From: Lachnospiraceae bacterium
GTDB lineage: Bacteria > Bacillota > Clostridia > Lachnospirales > Lachnospiraceae
DNA: 64,000 nt
Direction of reading: 5' to 3'
NCBI GenBank assembly: GCA_022483465.1
Contig: JAKVNF010000001.1
Span: 744,001 to 808,000, forward strand
A program made the translations under genes and the position numbers. Below, one piece after another: positions 34,069 through 37,393 of this stretch (position 1 is its first letter; each line of letters opens with the position of its first letter). The notes beneath the pieces are model-generated. The model was given only the letters and a program-made list of their open reading frames with translations, did no database searches and was not told the origin of the DNA.

Positions 34069-35428
34069 CTATGCAAGAAGCAGCGCCACGGCACGGGGAA
34101 AGGACAGCACCGCCGGCGTCCTCACAAGAGCAGTTCGGTCCGCATTCCAGGAGAGGGAAGTCACCGTCCCGCTCACCTGATGGGCCGCGAGAACGGTGTC
34201 CCCGGCGAGGATAAAGTCCCTCGGCATCACACCGCCCGTCTTCTGCGTGGAGAGCCGCTGCAGGATGCCGCCCTCTCTCACGGCAAAGACGCTGATGCTG
34301 TCATCACCCCGGTTCGAGGCAAGGACGCGTTTTCCATCCTCCGTCATCCGGATCGCGGCGCCGTAGGCGTCAAAATCCCCGACGGGGAGGGACCGAAGAT
34401 CCACCTCCTCCGGGATCGAGCGAAGTCTCTGGAGGTTTCTCCCCGTCACGGCATCGATCACCGTGACATTGGCGCCCATCTCTGTGATGCAGTAGATCCG
34501 CTTCCGGTCTTTGTCCAGGACAAGGTGCCTGGGTCCGTCCCCTGCCGCCGTGCGGTACTGCGGCGCCTGCTCTGTGAGACTTCCCTCCTTTTCCAGGCGG
34601 TAGTGCCAGATCCTGTCCTCCCCGAGGTCACAGGAGAAGAGCTCCTGTCCGGCAAACGCCGCAAAGTGCACATGCGCCTCCTGCTGCCGCCTCCAGTGCG
34701 CGCTTTTCCCCGTGTGGACCTTCCGGTCGGAGAGAGACAGCACGGTGCCATCCCCCTCGATGCGAAGGAGGGACAGACTCCCGTCCCCGTAGTTGGAGGC
34801 TGCAAGAGCCGTTCCATCCGCATTGACACAGACGTGGCAGCACCCCTTCCCGCCGTCTCCTGTGACGCCTGCCAGAGTGAGTGCTCCACTCTCCCCGATT
34901 CTCCAGGCGGCAACCGCCGCCTCCCCATTCTCTTTCTCTGCACAGGAGTAAAGAATGGGCTTGGCGTTAGTAAAGAACCGGGTTGATGGGTTCCATACCA
35001 CAACCTCCATGGTGAACTCTCGACGCGATAATGTCTGATGAAGATATAGAATCCCCATTTGGAGCTCTTTTCTTCTCTGCATAATGCCTATCTTGTTATT
35101 TATAGTCACATGCTCGGCAAGTAGGTGTATGCTTTTAGGCAATCTAGGTGATACTTTGTTACATGATGCAACACAGCACGGATAGAAGTGTACCCAGCTC
35201 GAGCTCAAAGTGAGGGATTAGTGGTCTCATGCTAGGCGATCGCTTATCAACCCGTTTCTTAACTAACGCCATGGGCTTTTTCGGATGTCTCGCAAAGTAG
35301 ATGGGATTTTTCACCCCGGCATAGCGGGCAAGGATCAAGATGTGTTTTCTCTCCCCGTCCAGTTCGCAGAGTGCAACTCCCGGCTCGCTTTTTTCTGCAT
35401 AGCTTCCGACATAGAATCGTATTGTCAT
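34069..35428 (-). pseudogene. 6-phosphogluconolactonase-like beta-propeller gene, interrupted by a MITE
   Basis: The N-terminal 52 codons (35428-35271: FYVGSYAEKSEPGVAL, YFARHPKKP) and the remaining 295 codons (34954-34069: ILYSCAEKENGEAA, CHVCVNADGTALAASNYGDGSL, GDGPRHLVLDKD, SNRGDDSISVF) are separated by the 308-bp element. Removing the element and one copy of ATGGGCTT rejoins them in frame as KKPILYSC, giving 347 residues, the usual length of YbhE/Pgl-type seven-bladed propeller lactonases. The insertion adds a stop after 35 element-coded residues. The gene also lost its ribosome site to the IscB element inserted directly before its ATG. It is almost certainly non-functional as the original enzyme. 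Confidence 0.93.
34963..35270 (-). mobile_element. 308-bp MITE-like element, copy 2, inside the lactonase gene
   Basis: This is the same length and orientation relative to its host gene as the copy at 26237, with only scattered base differences. It begins GGCGTTAGTAAAGAACC and ends with the inverted partner GTTTCTTAACTAACGCC. The flanking direct repeat is ATGGGCTT (34955-34962 and 35271-35278). The outward-reading frame starting MEVVVWNPSTRFFTNA is preserved and runs in phase into the rest of the lactonase gene. There is no transposase gene. The high identity to copy 1 suggests recent movement. Confidence 0.93.
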
Positions 35429-37299
35429 AATGAATACAGGCGCGGAAACCCCGCCGCTTGCAGCGGGGAGGAGCGCCGTCCCCCTTTCTCAAACAAAAGC
35501 TCCGGCATGATGCAATATCCGCAGCTTACTGACAGATACGCTTTTGCCTGAATTCAGTACAACTGCTGTGCCGTTGTTGTGTGTTCCAACTGCAACATAG
35601 GTATGCTTTTTATACATTACCTGTGTTCCCGGCTGAATCGGATATCGCTGCTTTCGAACGGCGATACGTCCTTTGCTTACCTTTTTGCCGTGAAAGATCC
35701 GAAAGTTCTTTTTCCCATTTCGAGGCTCTGAACGGTTTGTTCTGCCACATGACAGATCTGATCCGGACTTTTTGACACCATCCCCGATATCAATATACTT
35801 CGCGTCATAAAACTTCGATAAAACGCGATTATTGCGGCGTCTCTTTTTCAGAAGCTGTTCCGTCGCTCTGTGCACCGGCTGAAACGCTCCCATACAATAG
35901 GCATCATTTGCATGCGTCTTGGCAAGGGAGTGATCCCGACGTGACAGCTTTGTATATGCTCCATACGTGGTATGCACAGTCAGACTGGAATCCAAGTCTT
36001 TGACAGTCTGCACAATTTTCCACCGCACGGTGTTCATAAACGCTGCGCCAGTCAGAGGTTTCATCTTCGGCTTCCAGCCATATAATTTTCCCTTTTTTTG
36101 GTGATTCGCTGCCGTATGGCATTTTGTGCAGACCGTAATCAGGTTGCTCATCCGGTCTGTATGATCGGAGGGTGTTTTCCAGTAACCAACATGGTGCACA
36201 CGCAGAATCCGTCCATCTTCGATCCCCTTACCGCAGCACTGGCATTTGTAGCCGTCACGATAAAATACCGCTTCACGAAGCGTAGCAATGCTGTAACGGA
36301 CTCCATGCTGATAGTCTGATCCTTCCGGAATTGGCAGGCCCTTTTCCTTTGCCTCAAGTATCTGTGTATCGAATGTCCCCACTTCAAGGTATACATCACG
36401 AATCGGCAGTACCTTTTGGAACGTGGATACAAGACGCACATGGATATCCGCTTTATGCTGAAGTGAGGGTGCAAGCCATCCGGGCTTCTTGGAGTGCGTG
36501 CGATTGTCGAACCTCGCTTCACGATACCGAAGCCGGTTGCGTCTGCTCTTGCGGTACCGTCTCTGTGCATCGTGATGCTGCTTCTCATCTGCAAGTGTAT
36601 CGACCTGCAGATGGACAAACTCATGCTTTGCGCTCTTGACAGAGACACCGATATGCTGATAGCCGGTATCCTCGCAGAGTTCGACCTTCTGCGTATGCGG
36701 CGTTTTCTGATCCGGCAGAGCGTAGGTCAGCCGGATTGTAAATCCCGGCTTGTGGCCTGCAATGACTGCTCTGCCGCCTTTGAGCATCTGTCTCACCTTT
36801 TTGATATTGTAGGTCGGCATCAGCGGTGAGCCGTCTGCAGCCAGTACATAAATCAGCATAACTGATGCCTCCTTTCTGAAAATCAAACAATCGATACGGT
36901 GCCTTACGGCTTCCCGTGCTGTGTCTCCTCAGGGAAGGCATACACGGGGTTCTGCCTACAGGAGGCTCCTTCCCGGAGGAAGAAGCCCCGTTCGGCGGGT
37001 CCACATCGCCAATGTTGTCAGCAGTTTGTTGTGTATCACACTCCTCCTACCCTCAGAAATGTTTAGTGACACACCGCAGAGCAGTGGACTTGTGAGAGCA
37101 TCCACTGGTGCCTGTGTTCACGAGCAGACAAGCCGGAACTGGTCTGCCGAATTTGCCGACAACGTAGCCCATCCGCAACCCGAAGGTTTTTGGACAGGCT
37201 CTGGCTACTCACTCAGGACTGCGATGGTGCTGCAGTCCTCATGTTGGGCCGAGAGGGCCATGTGTTGCCACACAACCCCCACGGCTTGCCGTGGGGTTA
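35429..37299 (-). mobile_element. IscB element (IS200/IS605-like, HEARO type) without tnpA
   Basis: The element comprises an omega-RNA region, the iscB gene and short structured ends. On the minus strand the left end begins TAACCCCACGGCAAGCC with a perfect CCCCACGG/CCGTGGGG hairpin at 37277-37296. The right end carries a second hairpin, CCCCGC...GCGGGG, at 35449-35468, and finishes just before ATGACA. There is no direct repeat, as expected for this transposition mode. Removing it joins GGGGAGGAAAGAGACTCAC to ATGACA, a textbook ribosome site and start codon. No TnpA transposase is present, so it moves in trans or is immobile. The left boundary is uncertain by a few bases. Confidence 0.85.
35489..36859 (-). 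CDS. iscB: IscB RNA-guided HNH/RuvC endonuclease
   Basis: A 456-residue protein, the usual IscB size, ancestral in design to Cas9. PLMP at residues 12-15 is the N-terminal IscB signature. RuvC-I is CEDTGYQHIG (D64). The Arg-rich bridge helix is about 95-122 (RRYRKSRRNRLRYR). RuvC-II is VYLEVGTFDTQ (E159). The HNH domain is 195-255, with zinc cysteines C206/C209 and C244/C247, and H222-H223, N239 and H248. RuvC-III is THANDA (H316, D319). A Lys/Arg-rich C-terminal target-adjacent-motif domain ends KSVSVSKLRILHH. All catalytic residues are present, so it should be active. The ATG at 36859 follows AAAGGAGG; a longer frame starts at 36886. Confidence 0.93.
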   Translation of the reverse strand: MLIYVLAADGSPLMPTYNIKKVRQMLKGGRAVIAGHKPGFTIRLTYALPDQKTPHTQKVELCEDTGYQHIGVSVKSAKHEFVHLQVDTLADEKQHHDAQRRYRKSRRNRLRYREARFDNRTHSKKPGWLAPSLQHKADIHVRLVSTFQKVLPIRDVYLEVGTFDTQILEAKEKGLPIPEGSDYQHGVRYSIATLREAVFYRDGYKCQCCGKGIEDGRILRVHHVGYWKTPSDHTDRMSNLITVCTKCHTAANHQKKGKLYGWKPKMKPLTGAAFMNTVRWKIVQTVKDLDSSLTVHTTYGAYTKLSRRDHSLAKTHANDAYCMGAFQPVHRATEQLLKKRRRNNRVLSKFYDAKYIDIGDGVKKSGSDLSCGRTNRSEPRNGKKNFRIFHGKKVSKGRIAVRKQRYPIQPGTQVMYKKHTYVAVGTHNNGTAVVLNSGKSVSVSKLRILHHAGAFV

Positions 37300-37315
37300 G
37301 TGAGTCTCTTTCCTC
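36880..37315 (-). ncRNA. Omega-RNA (HEARO RNA) with guide at its 5' end
   Basis: About 430 bases upstream of iscB on the same strand have no gene but a chain of stem-loops: CCCCACGG/CCGTGGGG, TGTGTTGCC/GGCAACACA, AGGACTGC/GCAGTCCT, CAGTGGA/TCCACTG and others towards iscB. This is where IscB systems encode their guide RNA. In characterised IscB elements the guide is the sequence immediately outside the left end. Here that is GAGGAAAGAGACTCAC (37315-37300), the former ribosome site of the lactonase gene. The exact RNA ends are not known; the scaffold boundary near iscB is a guess. Confidence 0.8.
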
Positions 37316-37393
37316 CCCGAGCGTTTTCATGCGAGGTACTCTGATCTCTTCGCCGTTTCCGGGACCTGCCTGGACGGTATGCAGCCAGGCGTC

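What the first reader, a model, noticed from the sequence alone, without database searches (positions are those of the whole stretch)
35429..37299. Apparently complete IscB/omega-RNA element without a transposase
Seen: an IscB with PLMP, all three RuvC segments (D64, E159, H316/D319) and a zinc-bound HNH domain, preceded by about 430 bases of chained stem-loops and bounded by end hairpins. Known: IscB is the RNA-guided ancestor of Cas9, guided by omega-RNA (HEARO RNA) encoded upstream. Inference: this is an intact, probably active nuclease, and since no tnpA is present it depends on a transposase in trans or has been kept for another use.
Basis: partly seen in the sequence, partly recalled or inferred. 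Interest (0 to 1): 0.85.

Follow-up and report, generated by a model that had tools for sequence, protein, structure and literature searches.

The report
Intact multi-copy IscB mobile element
This is an intact copy of a known kind of bacterial mobile element that carries an RNA-guided DNA-cutting enzyme related to Cas9; it is one of about ten related copies in the same bacterium, and it sits exactly between a gene's ribosome-binding site and its start codon.

Summary
Confirmed: window 35429-37304 (minus strand, 1876 bp) is an intact IscB/omega-RNA element. HEARO scores 99.3 bits (cut-off 83), guided_IscB 270.6 (cut-off 175), and the named catalytic residues align with solved IscBs. The genome holds seven full-length copies including this one (one with a stop), three interrupted copies, fragments and two solo ends. 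IscB is under purifying selection (mean dN/dS 0.14); the omega-RNA region is about as constrained as second codon positions. The element lies directly before ATGA without target duplication; a related species has the uninterrupted lactonase gene. The flank beside the omega-RNA is the presumed guide, and no perfect second target was found, so a retention function is most likely. The missing adjacent tnpA is confirmed but ordinary for IscB (PMC9755519, passages). No TnpA with matching ends was found, so the mobilising transposase is unknown. Most interesting: five of ten two-ended copies separate a ribosome-binding site from an ATGA start codon, so guides consist of host ribosome-binding sites. 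New member of a known kind.

The parts
35429..37304 (-). complete IscB/omega-RNA element, 1876 bp
   Evidence: shared ends of 10 two-ended copies; comparison with relatives without it
35489..36859 (-). iscB coding sequence, 456 aa plus stop
   Evidence: NCBIfam NF040563 270.6 bits; Pfam RRXRR and HNH; PDB IscB chains
36994..37304 (-). HEARO (omega-RNA) scaffold
   Evidence: Rfam RF02033, 99.3 bits
36860..37304 (-). whole 445-nt omega-RNA/5' region; 1.7% mean difference between the seven full-length copies
37305..37320 (-). presumed 16-nt guide (TCGGGGAGGAAAGAGA) in the host flank; holds a ribosome-binding-site-like stretch of the lactonase gene (length and role inferred)
   Evidence: flank differs in each of 10 copies; its last 14 bases plus ATGA have no match with 0 or 1 mismatch elsewhere in the genome
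35425..35428 (-). target/presumed TAM ATGA, whose ATG is the lactonase start codon
   Evidence: ATGA follows the 3' end in 12 of 12 places read without requiring it, and in the solo end L082
35449..35468 (.). 3' end hairpin
   Evidence: sequence; shared by copies
37277..37296 (.). 5' end hairpin
34069..35428 (-). host lactonase gene: start codon cut off from its upstream region by the element, and interrupted again by a MITE-like insertion
   Evidence: Pfam Lactonase 219.8 bits; uninterrupted relative L129
34963..35270 (.). 308-bp MITE-like insertion with 26-bp inverted ends and 8-bp direct repeat ATGGGCTT; not part of the IscB element

Best explanation
It is a non-autonomous IscB (ISC-type, IS200/IS605-like) mobile element. 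Inferred mechanism: a Y1 transposase acting in trans moves it as single-stranded DNA and inserts it next to TCAT (ATGA on the iscB strand) without target duplication. A transcript from the host gene's promoter reads through the flank into the omega-RNA, so the flank becomes the guide. IscB with this RNA cuts the re-formed empty site (guide plus ATGA) after excision, or on a sister or incoming chromosome, and repair restores the element. Shown: anatomy, junctions, relatives without the insertion, copy number, selection on protein and RNA. Inferred: transposase, transcription, cleavage, retention.
For: HEARO 99.3 bits. guided_IscB 270.6 bits. PDB profile match to IscB structures, best E 1.1e-73. 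Seven full-length copies among 19 matches in the 4.3-Mb genome, one with a TAA; 10 HEARO matches at E 0.001. 5' end perfect in 10 of 11 places; ATGA after 12 of 12 3' ends. Uninterrupted relatives: window site in L129, GGDEF site in L132, c3 in many loci, c2 in L157 at only 59.6% identity; c10 in G334:C55 at 77%. dN/dS 0.09-0.19, mean 0.14, 21 pairs. Omega region 1.7% against 8.3% at third codon positions. The inserted copy reads guide+CTCA and so lacks the presumed TAM. ATGA fits the letters NWRR of published IscB TAMs (passages of PMC13180657), though not the G in fourth place that OgeuIscB variants prefer.
Against: No Y1 transposase with matching ends: 15 of 38 Y1 matches scanned with up to 7 substitutions, 14 more stretches holding 19 matches compared by BLAST, and a genome-wide end search found only iscB copies and two remnants. 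Copies differ by dS 0.07-0.20, so no very recent burst. In the relative L129 the stretch that would match the guide is missing, so this guide would not match that empty site. c5 gave no clean junction in relatives and c6 and c8 no spanning alignment. GC-skew test inconclusive. HEARO 82.7, below cut-off. No RNA or cleavage data.
Confidence: 0.85

Rival explanations
1. A domesticated IscB kept by the host for regulation or defence, no longer mobile.
For: No adjacent tnpA and no matching TnpA found; purifying selection.
Against: Copies at unrelated loci with clean junctions, interrupted and truncated copies, a different flank at each of 10 copies, and relatives without the insertion; a match in only 6 of 61 genomes including the own one, with a close (91%) relative in one other.
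Confidence: 0.07
2. A decaying fossil: intact by chance, no longer active.
For: One full-length copy has a stop, two carry an IS1595-family insertion, others are fragments; no TnpA partner found.
Against: Mean dN/dS 0.14 across copies and low omega-RNA divergence.
Confidence: 0.08

Closest known systems
IscB / HEARO (OgeuIscB, PDB 7xht; ISC elements)
   Same: PLMP, arginine-rich bridge stretch, RuvC I-III, HNH, HEARO RNA directly upstream, usually no adjacent tnpA
   Different: 31-38% identical to the ten other-genome IscBs aligned here; 456 aa; insertion before ATGA; published TAMs differ in detail (OrufIscB NTAAA)
IS200/IS605 elements (the tnpA+tnpB element of the same genome)
   Same: hairpin ends, short fixed target flank, presumed ssDNA mechanism (recalled)
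   Different: end sequences and target flanks differ; TnpB has its guide at the 3' side (recalled), IscB at the 5' side

Membership tests
IscB | PLMP motif and RuvC-I/II/III catalytic residues | tested here: met
   PLMP 12-15, D64, E159, H316, D319; D64, E159, H316, D319 invariant in 13 sequences
IscB | HNH domain with zinc-binding cysteines | tested here: met
   Pfam HNH 33.0 bits; C206, C209, C244, C247; zinc binding itself inferred
IscB | curated family model | tested here: met
   NF040563 270.6 bits, cut-off 175
IscB | omega-RNA (HEARO) directly upstream | tested here: met
   RF02033 99.3 bits; 82.7, just under 83,
IscB | variable flank next to the 5' end of the RNA, usable as guide | tested here: met
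   differs in all 10 copies shown
IscB | C-terminal TAM-interacting domain | tested here: inconclusive
   best PDB profile match stops at position 351 of 417; AlphaFold model poor, mean pLDDT 49.7
IscB | RNA-guided double-strand DNA cleavage | not testable with these tools
   needs biochemistry
IS200/IS605-like mobile element | hairpin ends, fixed short target, no duplication | tested here: met
IS200/IS605-like mobile element | cognate Y1 TnpA with the same ends | tested here: not met
   none found in this genome; few HEARO nucleases have one (PMC9755519, passages)

The most novel reading that the evidence does not exclude
IscB elements settle preferentially between the ribosome-binding site and the ATGA start codon of host genes, in sense. 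The host promoter thus transcribes the guide, and the guide itself is the host gene's ribosome-binding site; copies at sites without such read-through lose guide expression and then the element.
Probability: 0.3. Interest if true: 0.5.

Novelty: new member of a known kind. Interest (0 to 1): 0.33.

Why it matters
A genome with about ten related IscB copies under purifying selection, each with its own natural guide and several with insertion-free relatives, is a good natural test of whether RNA-guided cleavage keeps transposons in place, and of how a guide encoded outside the element gets transcribed.

Tried and rejected
AlphaFold model of IscB: mean pLDDT 49.7, not used; no fold search was run. 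GC-skew test of strand preference for 14 IscB sites and 11 IS605-type rows: skews near zero, inconclusive. Covariation in the omega-RNA: 2 of 143 pairs with changes on both sides in 11 sequences, too little variation to add to the Rfam hit. Open-frame test of start-codon preference: own genome 6 of 13 against 34.5% of 7725 ATGA sites, P 0.27, not significant; G208 9 of 17 against 24.1% of 286, P 0.0097. The ribosome-binding-site test (6 of 10 against 756 of 7777 sites, P 1.3e-4) was chosen after seeing the sites, and one of its six (c4) has flanks that do not form one gene. 5' flanks of the IscB family of G208: alignment too ragged to count. Paper searches for an ATGA or start-codon rule (listings only) showed none, but four key papers (HEARO 2009, IscB 2021, ISC 2016, TnpB/IscB 2023) are not held. 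I recall that the 2009 HEARO paper names ATGA or GTGA as integration sites; not checked.

Full report
Observation. iscB runs from 36859 to 35489 on the minus strand (456 aa plus stop). PLMP lies at residues 12-15, and D64, E159, H222, N239, H316, D319 and the cysteines 206, 209, 244, 247 are present. D64, E159, H222, H316, D319, C206, C244 and C247 are invariant among 13 aligned IscBs; C209 and N239 are nearly so. The protein matches guided_IscB at 270.6 bits and solved IscB chains by single sequence (10 distinct sequences) and by profile (23 distinct sequences, the best nine named IscB or IsrB). Rfam HEARO matches 36994-37304 minus at 99.3 bits, the only Rfam match of the window at gathering score. 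The separate genome search scored this copy 82.7, just under 83, so its tally over the cut-off was 0 of 1.

A repeated family. The own genome (4.3 Mb, 4 contigs) gave 19 matches to the protein: seven full-length copies including this one, the other six 95-98% identical, one of them with a TAA; three copies in two pieces; fragments; and two weak pieces at 38% and 29% identity. The 28-base 5' end was found 11 times, 10 perfect, and the 31-base 3' end 12 times, with none in the reversed-pattern control; the c4 3' end has a variant and was not in that list. One 5' end and one 3' end are solo remnants.

Exact ends. Ten copies have both ends. Each begins CTCACTAACCCC. Read without requiring it, ATGA follows the 3' end at 12 of 12 places, and also at the solo end L082. 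Searches used a pattern that required ATGA, so they are not independent evidence for it. Joined flanks continue a GGDEF frame (c9) and long open frames in c2 and c3. Relatives without the insertion: L129 for the window site, with the lactonase gene uninterrupted; L132 for the GGDEF site; many loci for c3; L157 for c2 at only 59.6% identity; c10 by a 77% match spanning the junction. L129 lacks about 50 bases directly upstream of the junction, including the guide-like stretch, though sequence further upstream matches. Alignments for c5 were not clean at the junction. The c4 flanks do not make one gene and may be recombined.

Selection. dN/dS among the seven full-length copies averages 0.14 over 21 pairs, with dS 0.07-0.20. 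The 445-nt omega-RNA region differs by 1.7% on average between those copies, against 2.9%, 1.5% and 8.3% at codon positions 1, 2 and 3. Both parts are therefore maintained.

The missing transposase. The genome has 38 Y1_Tnp matches, the nearest about 41 kb from this element. Fifteen of the 38 were scanned for the element ends with up to 7 substitutions, without a match; 14 further stretches, holding 19 more, gave only chance-length BLAST matches to the element. Three multi-copy tnpA families were delimited; their ends and target flanks differ. Six loci were also read by eye. A search with a home-made Y1 profile found none in 23 loci from the IscB searches, a set with partial, weak and duplicate loci, while the profile found known Y1 loci. 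PMC9755519 (passages) says that only a few HEARO nucleases are associated with TnpA. So the absence is ordinary, and mobilisation in trans is likely but its agent is unknown.

The guide. The 16 bases beside the RNA (37320-37305, minus) contain a ribosome-binding-site-like stretch, and the ATG of ATGA is the lactonase start codon. Searching the last 14 of them plus ATGA with up to 3 mismatches gave 9 places, and 5 in the reversed control; the closest are the element's own junction, which lacks ATGA, and one other site, each with two mismatches. So no second perfect target was found.

Start codons. Of the ten two-ended copies, c1, c5, c7, c8 and c10 sit between a ribosome-binding-site-like stretch and an ATG that opens a frame of at least 60 codons; the solo 3' end sits at the first codon of an acetolactate-synthase-like (TPP enzyme) gene. 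Eleven downstream frames were read in the sense of iscB; 9 have Pfam matches, c6 and c8 none. In long ORFs 53% of ATGA sites are sense. Ribosome-binding-site-like stretches precede 6 of 10 insertions against 756 of 7777 ATGA sites, P 1.3e-4, a test chosen after the fact. A cruder test was not significant here (6 of 13, P 0.27) and modest in G208 (9 of 17, P 0.0097). G208, whose IscB is 35% identical, has ATGA within 16 bases after the 3' end motif in 17 of 21 copies read (one of the four misses, L207, was probably not a true end). So the ATGA junction is shared by a distant IscB lineage.

Rarity. Within the order, 7 of 295 genomes, the own one included, have an IscB over the curated cut-off. 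In the relatives search 6 of 61 had any match. The close named relatives are two uncultured Lachnospiraceae assemblies, RUG285 and RUG433, and one uncultured Clostridiales, RUG117; that RUG means rumen is recalled.

Verdict. An intact, constrained, multi-copy IscB element of known kind. The start-codon pattern is the part worth a wider count.

Noticed in passing
window 34963-35270: 308-bp MITE-like insertion with 8-bp repeat ATGGGCTT, splitting the lactonase gene a second time; its ends resemble those of an IS1595-family element of the same genome.
   Followed up: partly
L008 2650-3863 and the same part of L009 (turned to iscB): An IS with the same transposase (Pfam DDE_Tnp_IS1595, 45.6 bits, tested for the L008 copy) sits at nearly the same codon of two different iscB copies, junctions one base apart.
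   Followed up: partly
genome G208 (L206-L235): 184 matches to one IscB family in one 7.7-Mb genome; most of those listed are partial, many split near residue 242.
   Followed up: partly
L082 around 1500: A 55-bp solo 3' end of the element lies directly before the start of a TPP-enzyme (acetolactate-synthase-like) gene.
   Followed up: partly
L004: Copy c4 has flanks that do not form one gene, perhaps from recombination between copies.
   Followed up: no
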